This document shows, piece by piece, positions 28,894 through 39,477 of a stretch of 64,000 bases of DNA. Numbering within the stretch: the stretch's first letter is position 1; the number at the start of each line of letters is the position of its first letter. The stretch covers positions 160,061-224,060 of the forward strand of contig PLGG01000012.1 in NCBI GenBank assembly GCA_003138515.1, given 5' to 3'. The DNA is from Acidobacteriaceae bacterium. GTDB lineage: Bacteria; Acidobacteriota; Terriglobia; Terriglobales; Acidobacteriaceae. The notes under the pieces are model-generated. The model did not search any database. It was not told the DNA's origin and saw nothing but the letters and a program-made list of their open reading frames with translations. The position numbers were made by a program, and so were the translations under genes.

Positions 28894-29077
28894 ACTACTT
28901 CGAGCCGGCCTCGTTGCCCGCTAGGATTGTTGGACGCCGAGAGTCCGTTGTTCCGCAACAAACCAGCTCCGATATAATCGCCCTTTGACTTGACCGCGGA
29001 AAAATCATCCCTATCAGAGCGATCCAAATCAATCGCTTCAGGTGAACGCGTGCGCGGCCGAAAGGGCAATCCCGTTG

Positions 29078-30517
29078 ATGACAGATATGACTCGCCGGCA
29101 GTTTGGCAAGACCGTGGCCGCAACGGCCGCGCTGGCAAACGTAGCGATGCCTGTAAGTGCACTTGGCCAAACGGCGGCGGCGAAGGGCCTCGAATTCCCG
29201 CAGGGATTTGTGTGGGGCTGCGCAACGGCTGCGTATCAGATTGAAGGCGCGGCTAGCGAGGACGGGCGGAAGCCGTCGATCTGGGATGTGTTTGCGCACA
29301 CACCGGGAAAGACGAACAACGGCGACACGGGCGATGTGGCCGACGATTCCTATCACTTGTTCAAAGAGGACACGCGCCTGCTGAAGAATCTGGGTGCGGG
29401 CGCATACCGGATGTCGGTTTCGTGGCCGCGCATCTTTCCCGACGGCACGGGGCAGCCGAATCCCATGGGAATGGACCACTACAAGCGCGTCGTGGATGAG
29501 TTGCTCGCGAGCGGAATTACACCTTACATCACGCTTTTCCATTGGGACCTTCCCGCTGCGCTCAAGGGAGGTTGGCAATCGCGCGACACAGCGCTGGCCT
29601 ACGCCGACTATGCGGGTTTTGTGGCAGACCAGCTAGCTGACCGCGTGCACCAATTCATGACTATCAACGAGTTTGATTCTTTTACCAACCTTGGGTACAA
29701 GACTGGCAAATTTGCGCCGGGATTCCAACTGCCCGCGGCTGAGGTGAACCAGGTGCGCCATCACGCGATCCTTGCGCACGGGCTGGGTGTGCAGGCGGTT
29801 CGCGCCAGCGCGCCGGCGGCGCAGGTGGGCCTGGCCGAGAATCCGACGGTGTTTACGCCGGTGATCGAAGATGAGAAGAATATCGAGGCGGCGCGGCGGG
29901 CGATGCGCGAAGAAAACGCCGCATTTCTGACTGCGGTTCTGGAAGGTAAATACACCGAGGGTTACCTGGAGCGCGAAGGAGAGAACGCCCCGCGAATCGC
30001 GGCGGGCGACATGCAAGCCATCGGGAGCCCGATCGACTTTCTCGGCTTGAACGTGTACTCGCCGTATTATGTTCGCGCGGACGATTCGCGGCAGGGGTAT
30101 GAAATTGTGCCGCGACAGGCGTCGCATCCGCACATGGCTTCGGAGTGGATCGCCGTTGGCCCGGAGGTGATGTACTGGGCGGTGCGCAATGTTAGCGAGC
30201 TGTGGCATCCGCGGGTCATCTACATCACGGAGAACGGGTGTTCGGCCGATGACGTGGTGACGGCAGACGGAAGGATTGAGGATACGGATCGCGTGATGTA
30301 CCTGCGCAACCACCTGACGCATTTGCACCGGGCAGCGGCGGAGGGATTTCCCGTCAAGGGTTACTTCCTGTGGAGCTTGCTGGATAACTTTGAGTGGGCC
30401 GACGGCTACAGCAAGCGCTTTGGACTTCATTACGTGGATTTCAAGACGAAGAAACGGACGGCAAAGCTGAGCGCGGATTGGTATCGCGAAGCAATTCGAC
30501 GGAACGCGGTGGTGTGA
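29078..30517 (+). CDS. Glycoside hydrolase family 1 beta-glucosidase-like enzyme, Tat-exported
   Basis: The ATG at 29078 gives MTDMTRRQFGKTVAATAALA, a twin-arginine signal (RRQF) with a hydrophobic stretch. An upstream in-frame ATG exists but lacks support. The catalytic TIM barrel starts at GFVWGCATAAYQIEGAASED, the standard GH1 opening. The acid/base Glu is in FMTINEFDSF; the usual NEP appears as NEF. The nucleophile Glu is in VIYITENGCS, followed by GYFLWSLLDNFEWADGYSKR, which binds the sugar. Length (479 residues including signal) is normal. GH1 enzymes hydrolyse beta-glucosides or beta-galactosides; exact specificity is unknown. Tat export suggests a folded protein active in the periplasm. 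It stands alone, with no transporter beside it. Confidence 0.92.
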   Translation: MTDMTRRQFGKTVAATAALANVAMPVSALGQTAAAKGLEFPQGFVWGCATAAYQIEGAASEDGRKPSIWDVFAHTPGKTNNGDTGDVADDSYHLFKEDTRLLKNLGAGAYRMSVSWPRIFPDGTGQPNPMGMDHYKRVVDELLASGITPYITLFHWDLPAALKGGWQSRDTALAYADYAGFVADQLADRVHQFMTINEFDSFTNLGYKTGKFAPGFQLPAAEVNQVRHHAILAHGLGVQAVRASAPAAQVGLAENPTVFTPVIEDEKNIEAARRAMREENAAFLTAVLEGKYTEGYLEREGENAPRIAAGDMQAIGSPIDFLGLNVYSPYYVRADDSRQGYEIVPRQASHPHMASEWIAVGPEVMYWAVRNVSELWHPRVIYITENGCSADDVVTADGRIEDTDRVMYLRNHLTHLHRAAAEGFPVKGYFLWSLLDNFEWADGYSKRFGLHYVDFKTKKRTAKLSADWYREAIRRNAVV

Positions 30518-30609
30518 TCTCGATCAAAGCGCCCGGGGCCGGGATAGGGCCGGCACAGAGGAACGCATTGCGCGCTCCCCTGTGCTGGATGTTCGTTCTG
30601 CCTTTTGTA

Positions 30610-31119
30610 TTAATGCGGTAAGACAAGCAGGTCCGCTGCCAGTAACTTCTCCGTCAGCCTGTCCAGAGCCAGCGGAAACCTGTAGCCAACTGTCCTGATA
30701 CCGATGCCGAGCATCAGGGCAGCTTCCTCTTGCGTGTAATCCTGAAGCACTACCTTGCCCAAAAGCTCCCGATCGAGGATGCTGAGCTGGCTCAGGCAAT
30801 TCTCGATGTCGAGGACGAAGATGACAGCGTCCTCGAAGGTTCGAATGGGACGGCTGGAGGCCCAACCCCGCCCGACAGGATCGCCCAGGATCGAAGGCGC
30901 CCTACCCACCTGCGTGGAAGCGTACAGATAGCGCCGCAATAAGCTCTCGGTGTGCTTCCGGTAGAAGGCCAGGTTGGCCGGAGGCTTGTAGTCGTGCTTT
31001 CCAAGGCTTAAGTCAGGCCGCGCCGCGGATTGTTGTTTCGATCTCCTTTGTTCGATTTGCCAGGCTGCCTCAGCGGTGCTGGCGTCCCATTCCATTGGCA
31101 ACTGAAAGGCTGCGCTCAT
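30610..31119 (-). CDS. Sigma-70 region-4-like DNA-binding protein
   Basis: The 169-residue protein ends with an HTH resembling region 4 of sigma factors: LSILDRELLGKVVLQDYTQE, then EAALMLGIGIRTVGYRFPLA and LDRLTEKLLAADLLVL. The N-terminal two-thirds is Arg/Ser-rich (IEQRRSKQQSAARPDLSLGK) and contains no region 2 core-binding helices, so it is not a complete sigma factor. Such short proteins occur as autonomous HTH regulators in mobile or plasmid-like regions. Its start ATG overlaps by four bases the stop of the zinc-ribbon gene, so the two are translationally coupled. Targets are unknown. Confidence 0.7.
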   Translation of the reverse strand: MSAAFQLPMEWDASTAEAAWQIEQRRSKQQSAARPDLSLGKHDYKPPANLAFYRKHTESLLRRYLYASTQVGRAPSILGDPVGRGWASSRPIRTFEDAVIFVLDIENCLSQLSILDRELLGKVVLQDYTQEEAALMLGIGIRTVGYRFPLALDRLTEKLLAADLLVLPH

Positions 31120-31325
31120 TGCGCACCTCCGGCTGCCTCAGCCACCGCCCAAACCCTGGCAAGTTGCTTACGGCTCGGACGTCCGCGCCGCCTGCGACTT
31201 TCCGGCGATGGAAAATCTCTCAGTTTAGATTCGCATTCCTTGCAGTACACACTCCCTTGAGTTTGGGCCCGGTACCAGAGGCAACCACACCCTTCGCAAA
31301 CCTTCAATTGCACGCGCACTTCCAT
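31116..31325 (-). CDS. Small zinc-ribbon protein
   Basis: The ATG at 31325 follows GGAGA at eight bases; six codons upstream another ATG has a weaker context. The 69-residue protein has a four-cysteine ribbon: VCEGCGCLWYRAQ and VYCKECE. A basic tail (ESRRRRGRPSRKQLARV) follows, which could contact nucleic acid. It is coupled by a 4-base overlap to the sigma-like gene. The pair probably acts together, for example as a DNA- or RNA-binding adaptor with its HTH partner; this is inference. Confidence 0.7.
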   Translation of the reverse strand: MEVRVQLKVCEGCGCLWYRAQTQGSVYCKECESKLRDFPSPESRRRRGRPSRKQLARVWAVAEAAGGAQ

Positions 31326-32011
31326 GACTGATTCTCCGCACATGTTTCTTCTCCCGACGGAATTTGGTGATGCATGTTGTTCCCCGGGGTGAAGAGAACC
31401 AGGCTGGACAACTCAGGTTTCTCATGTCCTGATGGGGGATTGCCGCCCGAGCTCTCTTGGTTTCTGTCATGACCATCGGCGCGCAGATCCTGGAATATTC
31501 TCGACTGACTTGTCTGGGGCGCCCCAACGAGGCGCTCGAGTGTGGGAACGGAGTTGCCGGATCGATCGAAATTCCTCCGGCAATGATCAATCGCCGCCGC
31601 AAGAGGCAGAAGTCCGCCTCCGCCTAAACGATTGGCGATAAAGCGTTTCCAAAAAGATTCCCACAAGTCAAAGTGTGATTCAGTAAACCCATTGTGGGGA
31701 TATGCTGCTCTTACGTCAACGACCCACTACGACTTTCCGGTCATTGCCTTTTAAATCGCCGCCAAGACGCTCAAAATGAAGGCAAATAAGCCCTAATAGT
31801 GGCAATAATATACTTGGCAAAACGGCAGGAATCAAGCACAATCGAAATGCCGTGACAGGGTGTAGCATGGGGCAAATAGAAAAGCCCGCTGGCAGGCGGG
31901 CTTTGGTCTTGCGGTTTGGCTCACTTCCAAATCATGCCATGGAGGTGTGCTTTGTCGCAAGTGCTATTTTCGCCTGTCCTATCTGCCTCCATGCAAGAGG
32001 AGGAATTGCGA
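31326..32011. other. Intergenic stretch without a convincing gene
   Basis: No frame here has both a ribosome site and recognisable content. A 120-codon reverse frame starting with TTG at 31666 was considered and not accepted. The stretch 31670-31860 is comparatively AT-rich, unlike its surroundings, and may hold a promoter for the gene at 32012. A hairpin sits at 31881-31904. Confidence 0.55.
31881..31904 (-). terminator. Hairpin with T-rich tail on the reverse strand
   Basis: AAAGCCCGC at 31881-31889 pairs perfectly with GCGGGCTTT at 31896-31904. On the reverse strand it continues with TTCTATTTG, so it could terminate transcription coming from the right. No gene on the reverse strand reads into it, so it may instead be a boundary left by a mobile element. 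Confidence 0.5.
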
Positions 32012-32668
32012 ATGACATTTCAGGTGGGATTGGTGGGCAGGGATTGTTTGCTTCTTGGGAGCGATCGGAAGCAAAGAGTGACCCCCACTATCTTCCGGGT
32101 GGAAGAGCAATACAGCGAATTCATTGGGCAACAGAAAATGAAGGTGAATTCTGAGCGAACCATCGCAGTGGCTTGCTCTGGAAGTGATGTCGTATGGGAA
32201 TCCGCGGAGAAGGTGCTGAGCGCCGAGGGAGCCACCTCGACTTCCGCTGAGTGGCTAGAAAAAATGATCAAAATTGGCGAATCTCGCCCCGCCACCTCAT
32301 GGAGAGACAAGATCCTGGTCCTGCGTTCTGGGCATGCCGGGGAATTTATCAGAATCGACATGGGAGAACGCACGCTAGAAATAAAGGACAAGATCACGAG
32401 CGGTTTACCACTTGCAGCTACATACTTTCTGAAGCGGTACTATCGCCAATCTCTGAGATTTGAGGCCTTGCGAAAACTGGCACTCCTCGTGCTGGACTGC
32501 GGCGCGCAAGAATCTCCAGAAAACGTCGGCTACGGATATGATCTTTTAGCTATTCGCAATGGAACGATCCAGCCCGTGGAGACTGTCCAAGAGGATAGCC
32601 ACGAGATTATAGAAATTCGTTCTCGCATGGAATCAGCGATCAAAGATATTCTCTTACGGGAGCACTGA
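32012..32668 (+). CDS. Orphan proteasome-like (N-terminal-threonine) hydrolase
   Basis: The ATG at 32012 follows AGAGGAGG at eight bases, so the frame upstream of it is not translated. The 218-residue protein begins MTFQVGLVGRDCLLLGSDRK. After removal of Met the new N-terminus is Thr1, and Asp17 of the family's DRK/DSR motif is in place. A lysine-rich segment, QQKMKVN, probably supplies the Lys33 equivalent, which would be shifted by an eight-residue insertion. Then RTIAVACSGSDVVW matches the strand containing the conserved Gly-rich turn of proteasome beta subunits. The rest is helical, with YFLKRYYRQSLRFEALRKLA. Proteasome-type peptidases work as rings; no partner alpha subunit, ATPase or Pup-like tag gene is nearby. 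It lies in an accessory patch and may be a peptidase of a mobile system. The fold assignment is probable, not certain. Confidence 0.65.
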   Translation: MTFQVGLVGRDCLLLGSDRKQRVTPTIFRVEEQYSEFIGQQKMKVNSERTIAVACSGSDVVWESAEKVLSAEGATSTSAEWLEKMIKIGESRPATSWRDKILVLRSGHAGEFIRIDMGERTLEIKDKITSGLPLAATYFLKRYYRQSLRFEALRKLALLVLDCGAQESPENVGYGYDLLAIRNGTIQPVETVQEDSHEIIEIRSRMESAIKDILLREH

Positions 32669-32709
32669 TAAACCTCGCAAAATGGCGAGCGTGCGAGACA
32701 ATTGAGGGC

Positions 32710-32913
32710 ATGAGAAAACTTGCGTTCGCGATTGTGGTTTGTTGCTTGACTGGATGCGGTTGCAACTGCCAGCGCTTTGTACCTATGCCACGCGCTGGCG
32801 ATGAAGGTCCGTTCGTGCTCGACACGAAAACCGGCCAGTTCTGCGACGGGAGCCCGAGGCAGAATAGTGTCTTCCCTCTGTGTCACGATCTTTATACCGG
32901 CAAGATCAACTAG
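32710..32913 (+). CDS. Small putative lipoprotein, 67 residues
   Basis: The ATG at 32710 begins MRKLAFAIVVCCLTGCGCNC, a signal peptide with a lipobox ending LTGC. The mature part is short and has several cysteines and a C-terminal stretch reading FPLCHDLYTGKIN. It is about 40 bases after the proteasome-like gene on the same strand. No function is recognised. An outer-membrane or periplasmic lipid anchor is likely. Confidence 0.6.
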   Translation: MRKLAFAIVVCCLTGCGCNCQRFVPMPRAGDEGPFVLDTKTGQFCDGSPRQNSVFPLCHDLYTGKIN

Positions 32914-32915
32914 GA

Positions 32916-33662
32916 TCAATTCGCTTTGCCGCCCTTGAGAGCCAGCAGCGTCTTGCGGGCAATATAGGCCGATTCCCCGAGTTGGTTGTTGCTTACCAAT
33001 TGCAGCAGCGCCCAGCGCAATTTTGCATCGGTCCTGGCGTTCACGGAAAGAATTCTCTTCATCGATTCGTAGGCAATGAGATCGGCGGCCTGAAGCCCTG
33101 CGGCGTTGCTGGACATGAAAGAGAGCGAACTAAATAGCGTCCTATCTTTGAACTTTTTGTCCGCGATCATCTGATCGTAAGCCTGAGTGGCGTGTGCGTT
33201 CCAATTCCCCGACTCAAATACCATTGCCAGCTTATCGCGAACAAATTTCTCCCGCACCACATGCCCAAGACTGATCATCACTTGCTTAACGCACAAACCA
33301 AACGCGGATTCGAGCATCGTGTCGGCCCTGTCTGGAAAAGCGTTAACCATATCTTTCAGGTTGACCGCTGCGGCCAGAAACACGGATGGGCGATTTTTTA
33401 GAATCGCAACGAGATCTGCAGTCAGTGCCTCGCTCATTGGCTTATCCCAGTTCTTGAATTCTTCCTTGAAGCCGTTCACGTTAGTTGCGTGAAAGCGCGA
33501 AATCTGCTGATCCGCCCGGTGCCTTTGATTCGTTGCCTTTATGCACGCATCCCAATCGCCCTCCAGTTGCTTCCATTGGCTTTCTTCCATGAGCCAGCCA
33601 CCGACAAGCATTAGCGTTTTTCCGTTGTCGTAACTTTCATCGAACTTGAATATGAGCGCCAT
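32916..33662 (-). CDS. DUF3800-like protein
   Basis: The ATG at 33662 (MALIFKFDESYDNGKTLMLV) opens a 248-residue protein. FDES at the N-terminus, followed by a Val-Gly-Gly stretch, is the start of DUF3800 proteins, a family with an RNase-H-like fold often found in defence or mobile regions. The frame extends 68 codons upstream but without conserved features. Later segments (MLESAFGLCVKQVMISLGHV, SSNAAGLQAADLIAYESMKR) also match this family, including the GLQAADLIAY motif that carries a conserved Asp. The enzymatic role is undefined in the family. Its start faces the small gene at 33767, about 105 bases away, with a hairpin (ACCCTCA/TGAGGGT) between them. Confidence 0.7.
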   Translation of the reverse strand: MALIFKFDESYDNGKTLMLVGGWLMEESQWKQLEGDWDACIKATNQRHRADQQISRFHATNVNGFKEEFKNWDKPMSEALTADLVAILKNRPSVFLAAAVNLKDMVNAFPDRADTMLESAFGLCVKQVMISLGHVVREKFVRDKLAMVFESGNWNAHATQAYDQMIADKKFKDRTLFSSLSFMSSNAAGLQAADLIAYESMKRILSVNARTDAKLRWALLQLVSNNQLGESAYIARKTLLALKGGKAN

Positions 33663-33743
33663 TAGGCGGTGTCCTTTGGGGCCGGAGTGAATGATGCGAA
33701 TGAGATCGCTAATTTCGAATTGACTGCGACGGAGCACGAGTAT

Positions 33744-33761
33744 ACCCTCATTTCTGAGGGT
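33744..33761. promoter_or_regulatory. Hairpin between divergent accessory genes
   Basis: ACCCTCA at 33744-33750 and TGAGGGT at 33755-33761 are perfect inverted repeats, with a four-base loop. They lie five bases before the GTG start at 33767 and upstream of the DUF3800-like gene. The hairpin may be an operator or translational control site. Confidence 0.4.
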
Positions 33762-33766
33762 GAACT

Positions 33767-33964
33767 GTGGCGAACGGCCCAACGACTTCCGCCAAGAATG
33801 TAGTGGGCACCGCCGCCGCTCTCGATTCTTTTGTGCGCCGGATTCTCGCTGTACCTCACAGCGCAATCAAGGCGAAGCTGGATCAGGAAAAAGCGGCGAA
33901 GCAAACGCCCATCAAGCGTTCCGCTTCCCGCGCTTCTGTCTCCTCATCCAACCGGGATACCTAG
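33767..33964 (+). CDS. Small conserved-looking protein, 65 residues
   Basis: The GTG at 33767 opens MANGPTTSAKNVVGTAAALD and continues SFVRRILAVPHSAIKAKLDQ. The pattern of an aromatic residue, then LAVPHSxIKAKLDxEK, resembles small helical proteins that occur beside DUF3800-type genes and in mobile regions. The end is a basic Ser/Arg-rich tail. It is divergent from the DUF3800-like gene and overlaps by a few bases the reconstructed end of the transposase on the other strand. No function is known. The frame is short, so the call is moderate. Confidence 0.5.
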   Translation: MANGPTTSAKNVVGTAAALDSFVRRILAVPHSAIKAKLDQEKAAKQTPIKRSASRASVSSSNRDT

Positions 33965-34946
33965 AAAGGCTCCGCACTCGTTTCTCCCACCTTGCCGGTC
34001 AGTTCTGCATAAGTTAGTCTCTTCCCTAAAATCTGCGATACTGCCAGCGAAAATCTATCCGCGTCGTCCAGCGAATTGTCTCTGGTGGTGCGGTTATTGT
34101 AGCGAAAAACCTGCTCAGTCACGTAACGGCAAGGTGGAATGGCTCAACTGCAACGTAAGTGCCCTTGAGCCCCCGCTTTAGCAGCGACCAGAAATTCTCG
34201 ATGCCCTGAGTGTGGACCTGGCCGCGAACGTACTTTTCCAAGTGGTTCACGGTCTCATGCACAAAGTCCCGGTGAGCGAGATTCCAATAGCCCTGCCACT
34301 GATCGGTGTAGACCTTCGACTTCTTCTCCACGTTCGCCAGAATCTCGTTTTGCAGGGTCTCGCGGTTCACATCGGGAATCACTTTGGCGCGAACCTGCCG
34401 AGTTTCGCGGTCCCGTATGCCCACGACGATTGCCTTGGTGGACGATCCGCCGACCGGCCTCCCCTTGTATTTGCTGCGCACCTTTGCGCGGTGCATGTTG
34501 CCAATCTTGCCGCCGACGAAAGTCTCATCCACTTCCACGGGGGCGCTACCAGGTCCGCCGAACTTTACGAGCGCGGTAGCTTTCATCCCGAGGCGAATCC
34601 TGTGCAGCATGAACCACGCGGTTTTCTGAGTCACGCCGATGGCACGGTGCAGCTCATAGCTGCTGATCCCGTTCTTGCAGTTGGCAAGGAGCCAGAATGC
34701 CGGTAGCCACTTCTCAAGGCGGATCGGCGAGTCTTCCATCACGGTCCCGGTCTTCAAAGTGAACTGGGGCGCATCATGCTTGGCGCGGCAATGCCAGCGG
34801 TCGTACTTCGCAAGGAACAGCACGTCCTTGGAGCCACAGCGAGGGCACACAACGCCGTCGGGCCAGCGGTTAGCAACAAGATACTCCCGGCAACGATCAG
34901 CGTCAGAGAAGTAAAGTATCGCGTCTTGAAGGGTTTTGAGCTTCAT
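33961..34946 (-). pseudogene. IS1595-type transposase, interrupted by a -1 frameshift
   Basis: The intact part (34119-34946) starts at ATG 34946 and has the family's zinc-finger-like N-terminus (VCPRCGSKDVLFLAKYDRWH) and the catalytic set EVDETFVGG, VYTDQWQGY and TQGIENFWSLLKRG. The frame stops after FHLAVT. Reading with a -1 shift at about 34131 restores the expected end: RYVTEQVFRYNNR, then DDADRFSLAVSQILGKRLTY and a stop at 33961-33963. So one base appears lost, or a programmed -1 shift is used. No terminal inverted repeats could be identified by eye, so the element's limits are unknown. It lies among accessory genes and marks this patch as mobile. Confidence 0.85.
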
Positions 34947-35060
34947 GGTTCAAGAATGCGCCTCTTTCTCTATTTTGTCAAGTATGTTAATGCCCTAATA
35001 GTTTTGCGAGAGGAAATGAGACAAGATTTCGTCTCATTGCCGGCGGCAAATTTTCCACAG

Positions 35061-35765
35061 ATGAATTTCACGCAGATGCACGAGCACCTCCGCCTGGAAC
35101 TGCTGCGCAGAATACAGCGGGGGACACTCAGCGTCTCACTGCTGGGCCGACAGACCGGATTTGGACAGGCCCATCTGTCCAACTTTCTGCATAGCCGGAG
35201 ACAACTCTCGTTGGAGGCCATGGACCGGATCCTGGCGGCGCAGCATTTGACCGTCGCTGACCTGCTGCCTTCTGTGCAAAGGCCGGAACGGTTATCCGGG
35301 AGCGATGGGGTCTGCGCGGTCCCGGTCGTCTCGCACGCAGTGGCGCTGTTCGAGCCGGTGATCCGGCCAACCGTCATTCAATCGCTGCTGCACCTGCCGG
35401 CGGCGGCGCTCGAATCGGTTCACTCGCGGGCGTCGGGAGCCAGGCGGGCATGGGAGCGGTTTGTCGCCGTTCGCGTGGCGGCTGCCGATGCCCCACCGAT
35501 GGAGCCGCTGCTGCTGCCGGAGGCAATCGCGCTCATCGATCGGCACTACAATTCGCTGCTGCCATACCGCCCCGATCGCGCGAATCTTTACGCGGTTCGG
35601 CAGGGATCGCACCTGACATTCCGATATGTGGATTTCATTGCCAGCCGTCTGGTGTTACGCCCACACAACCTTGCATTCCCTGTGTCGGTGATTGAAGTAG
35701 ACCCGGGAGAGTCGCCCAGCGAGTTGCTGGCCGGGCGGGTTGCGTTGATCTTGAACGAGCTGTGA
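35061..35765 (+). CDS. Helix-turn-helix regulator, 234 residues
   Basis: The start at ATG 35061 (MNFTQMHEHLRLELLRRIQR) is chosen because the HTH begins there; the frame runs 95 codons further upstream, across the transposase start, which is implausible. Residues about 8-70 are an XRE-like HTH: GRQTGFGQAHLSNFLHSRRQ, then LSLEAMDRILAAQHLTVADL. The C-terminal part (80-234) includes RYVDFIASRLVLRPHN and VEVDP-like ends, reminiscent of the ligand- or protease-like domains of phage-type repressors; I cannot assign it. Its role is probably local control in the accessory region. It faces the MurU-like gene tail-to-tail. Confidence 0.7.
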   Translation: MNFTQMHEHLRLELLRRIQRGTLSVSLLGRQTGFGQAHLSNFLHSRRQLSLEAMDRILAAQHLTVADLLPSVQRPERLSGSDGVCAVPVVSHAVALFEPVIRPTVIQSLLHLPAAALESVHSRASGARRAWERFVAVRVAAADAPPMEPLLLPEAIALIDRHYNSLLPYRPDRANLYAVRQGSHLTFRYVDFIASRLVLRPHNLAFPVSVIEVDPGESPSELLAGRVALILNEL

Positions 35766-35813
35766 AGAACAATGCGCGATGTAAGGCCGCAGATGAAGTG
35801 GCCGGGCGGTGCT

Positions 35814-36560
35814 TTAACTTGCGGGATATCTTCCGTTTGCCAGATCGCGTTCGGCTTCAGCGAGGTTCTCAGGCCGGCCGAGATCGCGCCAGTACGACTC
35901 ATCGGCGCAAAAGGCGCGGATCGCTTCACCCTGGGCGGCGAGATGGAGATACACGGGAATGATGGAGAAGGCGCCTTCCTCGGACATCTTGGAGAAAATG
36001 CGTGGCGAAAGGACGTGAATGCCACTGAAGGCGAGCGAATGGACCGGCTGCGCGGGGACGACCCACTCGGTTTCTGCATCGATGCGACGGCCGCAGAGCC
36101 GGCCATGCTCGTCGAAGAGAAGGTAACGCGAGGAGTCTCGCTGCTGAACGGCCAGGGTGGCGAGTGCGTTGTGTTCGACGTGAAAGCGGACCATGCGCGC
36201 AAGATCGACGGTGCTAAGGACATCGACGTTGTGGACGATGAAGGGCTGTTGCGCGCTTTCGCCGGCCTCCAGGAAAAACCAAGCGGTTTTTTTGAGGCCG
36301 CCGCCAGTGTCGAGCAAAACCTCCTCGCGCGAGATTTCAATGCGCATGCCGAAGTTGCGATTGGCCTGGAGGTATTCGACGATTTTGTCTGCGAAGTGAT
36401 GGACATTGAGAATGACCTCGCTGACGCCAAAGGCACGCAGGCGGCCGAGGGTGAGCTCAAGGAGGGTACGGCCGCCGACAGTGACCAGCGCTTTGGGGCT
36501 GTCGTTGGTGAGCGGACGCAGGCGCGTGCCCAGACCGGCGGCGAAAACCATGGCCTTCAT
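35814..36560 (-). CDS. Nucleotidyltransferase, MurU-like
   Basis: The 248-residue protein has the GT-A-type nucleotidyltransferase N-terminus MVFAAGLGTRLRPLTNDSPK, with the Gly-rich loop and Arg of sugar-1-phosphate nucleotidyltransferases. Later motifs LNVHHFADKIVEYL, LLDTGGGLKKTAWFF and FIVHNVDVLSTVD are also present. MurU converts N-acetylmuramate-1-phosphate and UTP to UDP-MurNAc in cell-wall recycling. The adjacent upstream gene is AmgK-like, the kinase that makes the MurNAc-1-phosphate in the same pathway. The stop of that gene abuts this start directly (TAA then ATG), which strongly suggests coupled translation. Length is normal. Substrate is inferred from the neighbour, since the fold alone also fits mannose-1-phosphate guanylyltransferases. 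Confidence 0.85.
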   Translation of the reverse strand: MKAMVFAAGLGTRLRPLTNDSPKALVTVGGRTLLELTLGRLRAFGVSEVILNVHHFADKIVEYLQANRNFGMRIEISREEVLLDTGGGLKKTAWFFLEAGESAQQPFIVHNVDVLSTVDLARMVRFHVEHNALATLAVQQRDSSRYLLFDEHGRLCGRRIDAETEWVVPAQPVHSLAFSGIHVLSPRIFSKMSEEGAFSIIPVYLHLAAQGEAIRAFCADESYWRDLGRPENLAEAERDLANGRYPAS

Positions 36561-38003
36561 TTACTTTGCTTCCCCTAACAATCCCAAGTTTTCGAGCTCG
36601 ATGTGACGGACGACAACTTCGATGCCGTTGACGCCAAGCAGGTGTTTGGCAAGTTGTTCCGCAAGAAAAACCGATCGATGTTGGCCACCGGTACAGCCAA
36701 AGGAGACCATCAGGCTGGAGAAACCGCGCTGACGATAGTTGGCGACACTGGCGTCGATGAGCGAAATGGCGTGTGACAGGAATTGATGGACGTTCTCCTG
36801 ACGGTCGAGGTATTCGATGACGGGCGCGTCGCGGCCGGTGAGTGAGCGGAATTGTTCTTCGCGGCCGGGGTTGGGCAGGCAGCGCGCATCGAAGACGAAT
36901 CCGCCGCCGTTGCCTGATTCATCGGCAGGCATGGAGTGGTGGAAGGAGAAGCTGAAGATGCGAACGGTCAAGCCCGTGGAAGGCGCGGCGCTTTGCTGCA
37001 GTTTTTCGCTGGATGACATTCTTTCGAGCGCATCGAGCAGGGCCGGCAGGGCGATAGGCAACCTGACGTGCTCCGCGAGCCAGCGCAGGTTCTTAAGCGC
37101 GTACGGAACGCTCTCAAGGAAATGCGGCTTGCGCTCATAGAATCCGCGGAAACCGTACGCGCCCAGCGCCTGCAGGATGCGGACGTAGACGAAGGCGTAA
37201 TAGTATTCCATGAATGCGTCGCGTTTGAGGCCGACGGAGTCGGCGAGGCAATCGAGATAGTGGTCGAGGAGTTGCTGGCGCAGATCCGGCGGCAGATCAG
37301 CCTTGCCGTCGAACAGGAGCGATGCGATGTCGTATTGCAGCGCGCCCTTGCGGCCGCCCTGGTAGTCGACGAACCAGGGATGGCCGTCGCACAGCATAAT
37401 GTTGCGCGATTGGAAATCGCGATAGAGAAAGTAGTCGTGATCGGCGCCGAGCAGAAATTTGGTCAGGCGCGTGAAATCGACTTCGAACGCCTGCTCGTTG
37501 AAGGGTATGCCGGCAAGGCGGAGAAAGTAGTACTTGAAATAGTTCAGGTCCCAGGCGATGGACTGGCGGTCGAAGCTGGCACGCGGATAGCAAACTTTGT
37601 AATTCAGATCGCGTCCCGCCTCGACCTGGAAGCGCGGCAGGACGGCGACAACTTTGCGATACGCTTCAACGACCTCGGGCGCGATTTCGTGTCCGGAACG
37701 ATTGGCGCTGAGGAATTCAAAGAGAGTGGTGTTGCCCAGATCTTCTTCGAGATAGGCCCCGTGGCTCAAGTCCTCGGCATAGATCTCGGGTACAGGCAGC
37801 CCGTGACGGCGGAAATGGCGGGAAAACTCGAGAAAAGCAACATTCTCTTCGCGCACGGAATAGAGAATTCCGACGGCGGTGTGCCCCGCGCCGGCGAGGC
37901 GGACAATGACGCGCCCGGAACCGCCGAGCTGGCCCTGGAGCGGCATAACGCGCTCCGGCGGCGACTGGAAGTGCTGCTCGAAAAGGCGTCTGAGAACGTC
38001 CAT
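36561..38003 (-). CDS. AmgK-like anomeric sugar kinase fused to a RapZ C-terminal-type domain
   Basis: The 480-residue protein starts at ATG 38003. Residues about 1-330 are an aminoglycoside-phosphotransferase-fold kinase. It carries DYFLYRDFQSRNIMLCDGHP, the catalytic-loop equivalent, followed by WFVDYQGGRKGALQYDIASL, the metal-binding motif (DFQ replaced by DYQ). This matches AmgK, which phosphorylates MurNAc and GlcNAc at C1. From about residue 350 a second domain appears: TVRIFSFSFHHSMPADESGN, FVFDARCLPNPGREEQFRSL, then VSFGCTGGQHRSVFLAEQLA. This is the C-terminal domain of RapZ, which in E. coli senses glucosamine-6-phosphate and controls glmZ RNA. It lacks the RapZ N-terminal P-loop domain. 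The fusion puts an amino-sugar sensor on the recycling kinase. The MurU-like gene follows directly. Confidence 0.88.
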   Translation of the reverse strand: MDVLRRLFEQHFQSPPERVMPLQGQLGGSGRVIVRLAGAGHTAVGILYSVREENVAFLEFSRHFRRHGLPVPEIYAEDLSHGAYLEEDLGNTTLFEFLSANRSGHEIAPEVVEAYRKVVAVLPRFQVEAGRDLNYKVCYPRASFDRQSIAWDLNYFKYYFLRLAGIPFNEQAFEVDFTRLTKFLLGADHDYFLYRDFQSRNIMLCDGHPWFVDYQGGRKGALQYDIASLLFDGKADLPPDLRQQLLDHYLDCLADSVGLKRDAFMEYYYAFVYVRILQALGAYGFRGFYERKPHFLESVPYALKNLRWLAEHVRLPIALPALLDALERMSSSEKLQQSAAPSTGLTVRIFSFSFHHSMPADESGNGGGFVFDARCLPNPGREEQFRSLTGRDAPVIEYLDRQENVHQFLSHAISLIDASVANYRQRGFSSLMVSFGCTGGQHRSVFLAEQLAKHLLGVNGIEVVVRHIELENLGLLGEAK

Positions 38004-38091
38004 GAAAGGCTACTGGGGTTGGCTCATGCTGCTTCGACAACAATAGTCACGCAGGGGAAGCGGACGCAAGGCGGGCAAGACGCCGAGGCGC

Positions 38092-39477
38092 TCAGTCGAC
38101 TTCATGCGCCGTATCGGGATTGTCGAATCGAGTAAACCGGGACGCGAAGTGCAGGTGCACAATGCCGGTGGGACCGTTACGTTGTTTGGCGATGATGAGC
38201 TCCGATTTGGCCTTTTCGTCCGACGTCATCTCCTCGTCGCGCTTGTAGTAACTGTCGCGGTGAATGAAGGCGACAACATCGGCGTCCTGCTCAATGGAGC
38301 CCGACTCGCGCAGATCGCTGAGCAAGGGGCGCTTGTCGTCGCGTTTTTCGTTGCTGCGCGAGAGTTGCGACAGCGCCATCACCGGTACCTGGAGTTCTTT
38401 GGCCATGGCCTTGAGGCCGCGCGAGATAGCAGACACCTCCTGAACGCGGTTCTCGTAGCCCTTGCGCGCGGCCCCCGGCGGGGTGGCCGACATCAGTTGC
38501 AGGTAGTCCACCACGACGAGATCGAGGCCGCCGGCGTTCTGCTTGAGGCGGCGCGCCTTGGCGCGCATCTCGGCCACCGTGGTATTCGCCGAGTCGTCGA
38601 TGAAGATGCGCGATTCAATCAGTTGTTCCAGCGCCAGTTGCAGTTTTTCGTGGTCCTTTCCGCCAATGTGACCGGCCTGCATCATTCGCTGATCGACCCA
38701 CGCCTGAGACGCCAACATGCGGCGCAGGAGCGATTCTCTGCTCATTTCCAGGCTGAAAACGGCCACGACTTTCCGATGCGTCACCGCCGCGTTTTGAGCG
38801 ATGTTGATAGCCAGGGCCGATTTTCCCATCGAGGGGCGAGCGGCGATGATGATCAACTCCCCTTTCTGAAGGCCTCGAGTCATCTCATCGAATTTCGTGA
38901 AGTCGGTTTGAAGACCGGTAATCGTGAGGCTCTGTTTGTAGAGGTTGTCGATCGTGCCGAACGAGTCGCGGACGATAATATCGAGGGGCTGCAGGCCTTG
39001 AGCGAGGCCGTTTTCGCTGACCTCGAGCAGTTGCGACTCGGTCTCATCGAGAACGCCGATGGCATCCTGGCTCTGGTCGGCAGCCTTAGCGATGGCGGCT
39101 GAGCAGATGCCCATGAGGCGGCGCAACATGCTCTTGTCTTTAACGATGCGGACGTAATCCTCGATGACCGGGCGGCGGGGCAAACCTTCAGTGAGGGATG
39201 CCAGGTAGGCGACGCCGCCGACGGATTCGACCTCCTTGTAGCGCGCCAGTTCTTCTGCAAGCGTGACAATGTCAATGGTGCGGCCAGTGTCGATCAACTC
39301 GCTCATACGGAGGAAGATGCGGCGATGCGAATCGAGCGAAAAGTCGTCGGCCTTGAGGGCTTCGGCGGCCTCGGCGTGGGCGGCATTATCGAGCAGGATC
39401 GCGCCCAGGATGGTCTTTTCCGCGTCAAGATTCGCGGGCAGGCCGGCTTCGAGGGTGAGGTCGGGGACAGTGGCCAT
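38092..39477 (-). CDS. dnaB: Replicative DNA helicase DnaB
   Basis: The ATG at 39477 (MATVPDLTLEAGLPANLDAE) is the start chosen; an upstream frame of 18 codons has no family content. The 461-residue protein has the N-terminal helical DnaB domain (EKTILGAILLDNAAHAEAAE) and the hexameric RecA-like helicase domain. The domain has Walker A in IIAARPSMGKSALAINIAQ, the H1a/H2 region with FSLEMSRESLLRRMLASQAW, the DLVVVDYLQLMSA Walker B, and MALSQLSRSNEKRDDKRPLL (H3). The end is VHLHFASRFTRFDNP. Length is normal. It unwinds DNA ahead of the replisome and binds DnaG, whose gene lies elsewhere in this window. It has no intein. The gene is single, between the recycling pair and the SDR. Confidence 0.97.
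   Translation of the reverse strand: MATVPDLTLEAGLPANLDAEKTILGAILLDNAAHAEAAEALKADDFSLDSHRRIFLRMSELIDTGRTIDIVTLAEELARYKEVESVGGVAYLASLTEGLPRRPVIEDYVRIVKDKSMLRRLMGICSAAIAKAADQSQDAIGVLDETESQLLEVSENGLAQGLQPLDIIVRDSFGTIDNLYKQSLTITGLQTDFTKFDEMTRGLQKGELIIIAARPSMGKSALAINIAQNAAVTHRKVVAVFSLEMSRESLLRRMLASQAWVDQRMMQAGHIGGKDHEKLQLALEQLIESRIFIDDSANTTVAEMRAKARRLKQNAGGLDLVVVDYLQLMSATPPGAARKGYENRVQEVSAISRGLKAMAKELQVPVMALSQLSRSNEKRDDKRPLLSDLRESGSIEQDADVVAFIHRDSYYKRDEEMTSDEKAKSELIIAKQRNGPTGIVHLHFASRFTRFDNPDTAHEVD

What the first reader, a model, noticed from the sequence alone, without database searches (positions are those of the whole stretch)
32012..32668. Orphan proteasome-like hydrolase in an accessory region
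The chain starts (after Met) with Thr and has the Asp17 motif and other beta-subunit features, but there is no partner alpha subunit, ATPase or tagging gene. Together with the DUF3800-like gene, the lipoprotein and the transposase, it suggests an uncharacterised mobile proteolytic or defence module.
Basis: partly seen in the sequence, partly recalled or inferred. Interest (0 to 1): 0.6.

Follow-up and report, generated by a model that had tools for sequence, protein, structure and literature searches.

The report
Proteasome-like enzyme riding a transposon
A free-standing relative of the proteasome's cutting subunit, with its catalytic residues in place, is carried by a small jumping element in an acidobacterium, and some of its relatives ride similar elements and phages; what it does is unknown but can be tested.

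Summary
Window 32012-32668 encodes a 218-aa protein with Met-Thr start, Asp17 and Lys33. A 16-member family profile matches archaeal proteasome beta over nearly its whole length (E 5e-8). The predicted model has the proteasome/Anbu fold (VIA Z about 22), with Thr1 in register.

The gene, a small lipoprotein-like ORF, a DUF3800 gene and an IS1595-family transposase lie in one 3,194-bp element (31801-34994) with about 25-bp terminal inverted repeats and an 8-bp target duplication. Six of seven relatives fetched lack the insert there; the seventh holds a different insertion. Two other family members sit in separate IS1595 elements with perfect 8-bp duplications; some others lie in viral contigs or near integrases.

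So this is a recurrent cargo gene: a proteasome-like subfamily found so far almost only in Acidobacteria(ceae) and two viral contigs. Ntn-hydrolase chemistry is inferred from fold and residues. Activity, oligomer and substrate are untested; a role in conflict between mobile elements is my inference. The broader proteasome-like family, phage members included, is already known (Fuchs et al. 2021).

The parts
31793..31800 (.). left target-site duplication CTAATAGT
   Evidence: adjoins the empty-site breakpoints
31801..31825 (+). left terminal inverted repeat, starts GG
   Evidence: 20 of 25 identical to the right end read outside-in
31801..34994 (.). IS1595-family cargo transposon, 3,194 bp
   Evidence: TIRs, 8-bp TSD, IS1595 transposase, insert absent in 6 of 7 relatives fetched
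31998..32003 (+). Shine-Dalgarno-like AGGAGG
   Evidence: sequence
32012..32668 (+). proteasome-beta-like Ntn hydrolase gene (218 aa; Thr1, Asp17, Lys33, Gly47)
32710..32913 (+). small lipoprotein-like ORF (67 aa; lipobox LTGC read by eye)
   Evidence: sequence; no Pfam or PADLOC family (given from 32707)
32916..33662 (-). DUF3800 protein gene (PF12686)
   Evidence: E 5.5e-4, just at the curated cut-off
34119..34946 (-). IS1595-family (ISXO2-like) transposase with zinc ribbon; C-terminal part out of frame
   Evidence: PF12762 1.4e-35 and PF12760 4.1e-10; its expected C-terminal sequence lies in another frame at about 33961-34125
34970..34994 (-). right terminal inverted repeat
34995..35002 (.). 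right target-site duplication CTAATAGT

Best explanation
Shown: the gene encodes a proteasome-like (predicted Ntn-fold) protein with Thr1, Asp17, Lys33 and Gly47 in place, and it is cargo of an IS1595-family transposon that inserted between a sigma-70-like gene with a small zinc-ribbon ORF and an HTH-like gene. Inferred: methionine aminopeptidase removes Met1, which exposes Thr1. The Thr1 hydroxyl attacks a peptide or amide carbonyl, helped by Lys33/Asp17, with the Gly47 amide as oxyanion hole. It works without an alpha ring or a dedicated ATPase, as a homo-oligomer or monomer, on a limited set of substrates. It persists because it moves: IS1595 transposons, phages and islands carry it from genome to genome. 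Its most likely service, inference only, is in conflict between mobile elements, for example cutting a protein of an incoming phage or rival element. The confidence given covers the mobile-borne, ATPase-free Ntn hydrolase; the conflict role alone I put at about 0.25.
For: Fold and residues. Start at Met-Thr in two relatives. Transposon: transposase, TIR/TSD, empty sites. Recurrence: L119 and L130 elements with TIRs, IS1595 transposase and perfect 8-bp TSDs; within 9 kb of the 18 family loci a transposase profile finds IS1595 transposases only at these three, each inside the unit with the gene. L121 carries the gene between two window-type TIRs without a transposase. The three transposon-borne members lie apart in the tree. 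Two viral contigs carry the gene. Foreign composition: gene 50.8% GC, element 53.3%, flanks 59-60%. dN/dS 0.35 and 0.15 for the two pieces shared by an intact copy and the broken E. modestus copy. Gabija GajA/GajB near one member.
Against: No activity, oligomer or substrate data. Ten of 16 members lack Gly47 (A-x-D/N/S instead), so part of the family may be inactive or different; the window member keeps it (read by eye over a one-column gap). Proteasome D166 and S169 are not clearly conserved. Defence is weakly supported: no PADLOC match for the hydrolase, and L120 and L011 lie among ordinary-looking chromosomal genes (by eye). Only 3 of 18 loci are in IS1595 units with a transposase. One of 30 control intervals reached a TIR+TSD score of 26 against 27 for the window, so the score alone would not prove the ends; the empty sites do. 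The window's transposase is frameshifted, so this copy may no longer move by itself.
Confidence: 0.6

Rival explanations
1. An ATP-independent clean-up peptidase that benefits the host (unfolded or damaged proteins), like the uncapped 20S proteasome or the proposal for BPH, spread by mobile elements only by chance.
For: Fuchs et al. 2021 (PMC8665760) raise this for orphan homologues without ATPases; in L120 and L011 the gene stands alone among ordinary-looking chromosomal genes (by eye).
Against: Very patchy: 16 of 398 genomes of the bacterial family match at all, at least four of these only through other orphan families. Divergence is high, the gene recurs inside mobile elements, and the host already has HslV with an HslU-like ORF.
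Confidence: 0.2
2. A specific transpeptidase, ligase or amidase rather than a protease, like the monomeric archaeal connectase.
For: One member's only Pfam hit is connectase MJ0548_N, weak, E 0.03. The invariant Gln3 next to Thr1 (16 of 16) and the Asn common in the GDxxN loop look family-specific and could tune the acyl-enzyme.
Against: The profile finds proteasome subunits, and no connectase is among the 60 rows shown. Helices are predicted at 59-70 and 78-90, which I take for H1/H2; the paper says connectase lacks these.
Confidence: 0.15
3. A regulator or processing factor of the mobile element itself, for example one that trims the transposase or a phage protein.
For: Recurs within IS1595 units beside the transposase gene and on viral contigs.
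Against: Sister elements with window-type TIRs carry a transposase but no hydrolase (L178, L179), so it is not needed to move. In L023 it is on the opposite strand to a terminase-like ORF (named by eye).
Confidence: 0.12
4. A decaying passenger without function.
For: The window transposase is frameshifted; the E. modestus copy is broken and L049 truncated.
Against: Thr1, Gln3 and Asp17 are in 16 of 16 and the Lys column is nearly invariant; dN/dS is well under 1 in the one pair measured; 15 of 18 loci read hold an apparently complete open frame, one more being cut by a contig end.
Confidence: 0.1

Closest known systems
Proteasome-like family of Fuchs, Alva and Lupas 2021 (20S alpha/beta, HslV, Anbu, BPH, connectase and 22 further subfamilies)
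   Same: Predicted fold, Thr1/Asp17/Lys33, no propeptide (shown in two members), no dedicated ATPase seen; some subfamilies (PPH, AAH) are linked to phages according to the paper.
   Different: No subfamily in their Table 1 is named for Acidobacteria. Gln3 is invariant in the 16 read here, Gly47 is lost in 10 of 16, and the gene is transposon cargo. Their alignments were not at hand, so overlap with one of the 22 cannot be excluded.
Anbu (5nyg, 5nyw, 5nyj, 5lox)
   Same: Fold over the whole model, Z 22.1, rmsd 2.5 over 207 residues; long C-terminal helix in the model (197-215).
   Different: 12-17% identity in the structural alignments; no Anbu chain is among the 60 sequence hits shown.
Archaeal 20S proteasome beta (6he5, 1j2q)
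   Same: Best sequence-profile match, E 5e-8, positions 2-207.
   Different: No alpha subunit found in the genome; D166/S169 not clearly conserved; stand-alone gene.
Transporter IS of the IS1595 family (tIS, e.g. tISCpe8)
   Same: IS1595 transposase with zinc ribbon, inverted ends starting GG, 8-bp TSD, passenger genes between the ends.
   Different: Passengers are a proteasome-like hydrolase, a lipoprotein-like ORF and DUF3800; the transposase is frameshifted in this copy.

Membership tests
Proteasome-like (Ntn hydrolase) family | Ntn proteasome fold | tested here: met
   predicted model: AlphaFold2 pLDDT 81.7, pTM 0.81; Foldseek E down to 1.4e-11; VIA Z 22
Proteasome-like (Ntn hydrolase) family | sequence relationship | tested here: met
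   16-row profile against PDB: proteasome beta 5.2e-8. The window protein alone has no Pfam hit; 6 of 16 members hit PF00227 at E up to 1, best 0.0044
Proteasome-like (Ntn hydrolase) family | Thr1 after Met | tested here: met
   16 of 16 rows with an N-terminus; in-frame stops upstream in L120 and L011. Removal of Met itself not tested
Proteasome-like (Ntn hydrolase) family | Asp17 and Lys33 | tested here: met
   Asp17 16 of 16; Lys column nearly invariant, aligned with K33; the alignment is one column off there
Proteasome-like (Ntn hydrolase) family | Gly47 oxyanion residue | tested here: met
   present in the window protein (SGS) but in only 6 of 16 members, read by eye over a one-column gap
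Proteasome-like (Ntn hydrolase) family | assembly and peptidase activity | not testable with these tools
   needs protein
20S proteasome | alpha subunit in the genome | tested here: not met
   only 2 PF00227 matches in G000 at E 0.001 (97% complete assembly): HslV and L158
HslV | partner HslU beside it | tested here: not met
   no ATPase seen in the element; the genome's HslV with an HslU-like ORF lies on another contig
Anbu | Anbu-type sequence and split-ring assembly | tested here: inconclusive
   fold match, no sequence match among rows shown; assembly not testable
PPH, AAH and the other new subfamilies of Fuchs 2021 | membership of their sequence clusters | not tested
   their sequences and alignments were not available
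IS1595-family transporter IS | DDE_Tnp_IS1595 domain and zinc ribbon | tested here: met
   PF12762 1.4e-35, PF12760 4.1e-10
IS1595-family transporter IS | terminal inverted repeats and 8-bp TSD | tested here: met
   the 8-bp rule for IS1595 and GG ends of the related Merlin elements from passages of PMC8101967
IS1595-family transporter IS | passenger genes inside a unit that moved | tested here: met
   insert absent in 6 of 7 relatives fetched
IS1595-family transporter IS | intact transposase | tested here: not met
   C-terminal part out of frame; real change or assembly error not known
Known anti-phage defence systems (PADLOC) | match to a model | tested here: not met
   0 families for the three cargo proteins of the element at E 0.01; transposase not scanned

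The most novel reading that the evidence does not exclude
A family of stand-alone proteasome-type threonine hydrolases has become a portable weapon or shield of mobile elements: IS1595 transposons, temperate phages and defence islands of Acidobacteriaceae exchange it, and it cuts one or a few proteins of competing elements. To my knowledge that would make it the first proteasome relative with a role in conflict between mobile elements.
Probability: 0.25. Interest if true: 0.8.

Novelty: new member of a known kind. Interest (0 to 1): 0.5.

Why it matters
Fuchs et al. (PMC8665760, parts 1-4 of 6 read) wrote that they found no genomic context suggestive of a function for the orphan proteasome homologues. 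Here a context is exact: cargo of IS1595 transposons in three separate elements, plus two viral contigs. In the listings I saw no report of a proteasome relative as IS cargo; most subscription papers are outside that library. The family has an apparently intact member in a named strain (Granulicella aggregans M8UP14), so activity, assembly and effects on phages or plasmids can be tested directly. It also shows that small IS1595 units in this genus carry varied cargo worth listing.

Tried and rejected
Single-sequence searches with the window protein in Pfam, PADLOC, plasmids and phages found nothing; only the family profile and the fold made the relationship clear. The viral scan with A1 found nothing. 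The DNA pattern scan gave 55 stretches in genome contigs: I kept 13 in 11 genomes after reading the frames and dropped 42, of which 37 begin [VM]TLQ[VI]G in a recurrent frame, mostly of Pseudomonas, that does not look like the family beyond the pattern. An earlier count said 15 kept in genome contigs; the correct number is 13, plus two viral contigs. Weak profile matches L009, L010, L022 and L118 were not accepted; C-terminal pieces in G020 (L018/L096) and G693 (L114) were left out of all counts. Proteins L019, L097, L111-L113, L115 and L117 matched A1, A2 or A5 but lack Gln3 and fall outside the family (100/98); L116 also lacks Gln3 and was not put in the tree. The DUF3800 model was poor (pLDDT 46) and not used. 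Rfam: one sub-threshold chance match. A gene-calling script left most family genes out or scored them low; I then read frames directly. The idea that hydrolase and DUF3800 form a fixed pair was dropped (2 of 18 loci; L179 has DUF3800 alone). The idea that all members are transposon cargo was dropped: a TIR+TSD scan of the 18 family loci and L158 found a convincing pair in the window and L130 only; L119 was seen by another tool, with a 1-nt offset.

Many end branches of the tree are long, so exact placings are unsure.

Full report
Observation. Window 32012-32668 (+) is an open frame of 218 aa. Counted from the Thr after Met, Asp is residue 17. An AGGAGG lies 8 nt before the ATG. The N-terminal codon pattern of the family occurs once in the window and in none of 100 shuffles (partly circular, since the pattern was made from the family). 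The window protein alone matches no Pfam family and nothing significant in the PDB by sequence (best 0.64, an archaeal proteasome alpha subunit).

Relatives. All tallies here include the window's own genome. Searching 60 relatives with the protein gave 3 genomes with a match; profile searches of the genus gave 4 of 80, 8 of 79 (E 0.01) and 9 of 79 (E 0.001), some through other orphan families. A single-sequence search of 200 family genomes with the L002 protein found only the own genome. In 398 genomes of the bacterial family, 16 match the A5 profile at E 0.001, at least four of them only through other orphan families (read). In phylum-wide samples 3 of 396 and 2 of 396 matched, all but the own one weak. 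A DNA pattern for the N-terminus over the genome-contig collection (84,980 species) gave 55 stretches, of which 13, in 11 genomes, are the family: ten genomes labelled Acidobacteria, Acidobacteriaceae or a genus of that family, and one labelled Hyphomicrobiales whose contig carries window-type TIRs and may be mis-binned. Members that depart from the pattern are missed. Two viral contigs hold the gene. No plasmid or phage record matched the window protein.

Fold and residues. Sixteen sequences (A5) give a profile whose 60 best PDB sequences (of 82 at E up to 10) are all labelled proteasome, the best archaeal beta at 5.2e-8 over positions 2-207. Six of 16 members hit Pfam Proteasome, best E 0.0044. 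The model of the window protein (pLDDT 81.7, pTM 0.81) matches proteasome beta and Anbu (Foldseek; VIA Z 22.2, rmsd 2.2 over 184 residues for 8adn_K, and Z 22.1, rmsd 2.5 over 207 for Anbu 5nyg_E); model residue 2 falls on chain residue 1 in several beta rows. In the viral library the best match is a phage protein named 'Proteasome beta type-2 subunit'. Thr1, Gln3 and Asp17 are in 16 of 16 (A5 with the contig-end fragment L003 left out and L130 added). The lysine that aligns with K33 is nearly invariant in A5. Gly47, read by eye over a one-column gap, is in 6 of 16, the window among them; these six form one weakly supported group in the tree (82/87). The other ten have A-x-D, N or S. The alignment is one column off at K33 and uncertain around D166/S169; neither of the latter is clearly conserved. 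In L120 and L011 an in-frame stop sits just upstream of ATG-ACN, which rules out a propeptide there.

The element. DNA of window 28900-38200 was compared with 20 relatives and the own genome, and seven relatives were fetched at this site. In G006 the match runs from window 31782 to 35003 with 18 bases between; in G011 from 31792 to 35028 with 31; in G007 from 31719 to 35000 with 79. In G004, G005 and G010 the left match ends near 31490 and about 300 unaligned bases follow before 35000-35028, which leaves no room for a 3.2-kb insert. G003 has another insertion near the same spot, with another transposase that I read as IS1595-type (by eye). At the edges lie an 8-bp duplication (CTAATAGT, 31793-31800 and 34995-35002) and inverted ends identical at 20 of 25 positions, starting GG. 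The combined TIR+TSD score is 27 of 32; 30 control intervals gave 26 once and otherwise 23 or nothing, so the empty sites are the main proof. IS1595 elements are described with 8-bp duplications, mostly a zinc finger, and a single transposase gene, and the related Merlin elements with ends in GG (passages of PMC8101967). IS with passenger genes are called transporter IS, citing the IS1595 paper of Siguier et al. 2009, which I did not read (passages of PMC3129680; PMC5704250). Here the passengers are the hydrolase, a lipoprotein-like ORF and DUF3800. The transposase reading frame breaks near its C-terminus.

Recurrence. I read the surroundings of 18 family loci (the 16 of A5, L130, and the broken E. 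modestus copy). A profile of five IS1595 transposases, three of them from these units, finds transposases within 9 kb in 3 of 18, and these three are units with perfect 8-bp TSDs around both genes: the window, L119 (9784-11876, CAAAGGCG) and L130 (7101-9186, AAATATAT). The transposases are 30-35% identical to each other. L121 has window-type TIRs on both sides, no transposase and no duplication. L023 and L129 are viral contigs, the latter with a phage-type integrase and replication gene. L122 and L126 have phage-family integrases near, L125 one by homology, and L128 one about 8 kb away. L012 has GajA and GajB of Gabija (E 1.5e-111 and 1.4e-49) and a DUF3800 gene. L120 and L011 show no mobile gene close by, nor did I recognise one in L127; L123 has a recombinase-like ORF about 8.5 kb away; L013, L014 and L124 are short contigs. 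Members on IS1595 units fall in three places of the tree. TIR-like sequences of the window type are found in 12 of 79 genus genomes (0 for the reversed-pattern control); paired, facing ends on one contig were listed only in G000 (two pairs) and G035. Of five places then fetched, these two further pairs were read in full and carry other cargo: L179, DUF3800 with a perfect TSD, and L178 in the window's own genome, two unknown ORFs with no TSD.

How it probably works. Established knowledge of proteasome beta subunits makes an Ntn-hydrolase mechanism with Thr1 after Met removal the natural reading; this is inferred, not shown. The host has HslV with an HslU-like ORF beside it elsewhere, so the gene is extra. 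DUF3800 has been predicted by others to have an RNase H nuclease fold (passage of PMC10910872). My own DUF3800 model was too poor to use. A role in mobile-element conflict fits the carriers and one Gabija neighbour, but nothing here shows it. A dN/dS of 0.35 and 0.15 for the two pieces shared by L012 and the E. modestus copy suggests the protein was under selection (one pair only, one member broken).

Comparison. Fuchs et al. 2021 (PMC8665760, parts 1-4 of 6 read) describe 22 further proteasome-like subfamilies, two of them (PPH, AAH) closely linked to phages, with no context suggestive of a function. This family fits their definition. Whether it is one of the 22 could not be tested. I file it as a new member of a known kind whose notable feature is its carrier.

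Noticed in passing
L012:2887-5477 (-): Gabija GajA and GajB genes about 1-3.5 kb from a DUF3800 gene and a family member.
   Followed up: partly
L127:10212-11033 (-) and L128:5303-6022 (+): A conserved secreted-looking protein (69% identical) lies just upstream, same strand, of two very different family members; no Pfam match.
   Followed up: partly
L019, L097, L111-L113, L115-L117, L158: Several other orphan proteasome-like families in the same bacterial family, often with Met-Thr or Val-Thr before a proteasome-like strand; one is in the window's own genome.
   Followed up: partly
L178:265-3480 and L179:844-3593: Other elements with the same type of ends as the window transposon and different cargo; L178 is in the window's own genome and its transposase frame looks intact.
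   Followed up: partly
L154:1300-4870: A different insertion with an IS1595-type transposase (by eye) in a relative, within about 60 bp of the window element's target site.
   Followed up: no
L123:9649-10328: Edaphobacter modestus holds a broken family copy in two pieces.
   Followed up: partly
L121 (JAATFR010000254.1): Contig labelled Hyphomicrobiales carries window-type TIRs and a family member between them without a transposase; possibly mis-binned.
   Followed up: no
L023:9686-12961 (-): Terminase-like ORF of 1091 aa that seems to hold intein-like insertions, read by eye only.
   Followed up: no
25 nt upstream of the family start codons: A similar GAGGAATTGCC-like stretch precedes the ATG in several members; in frame it would read EELP. 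Probably the ribosome-binding context.
   Followed up: no
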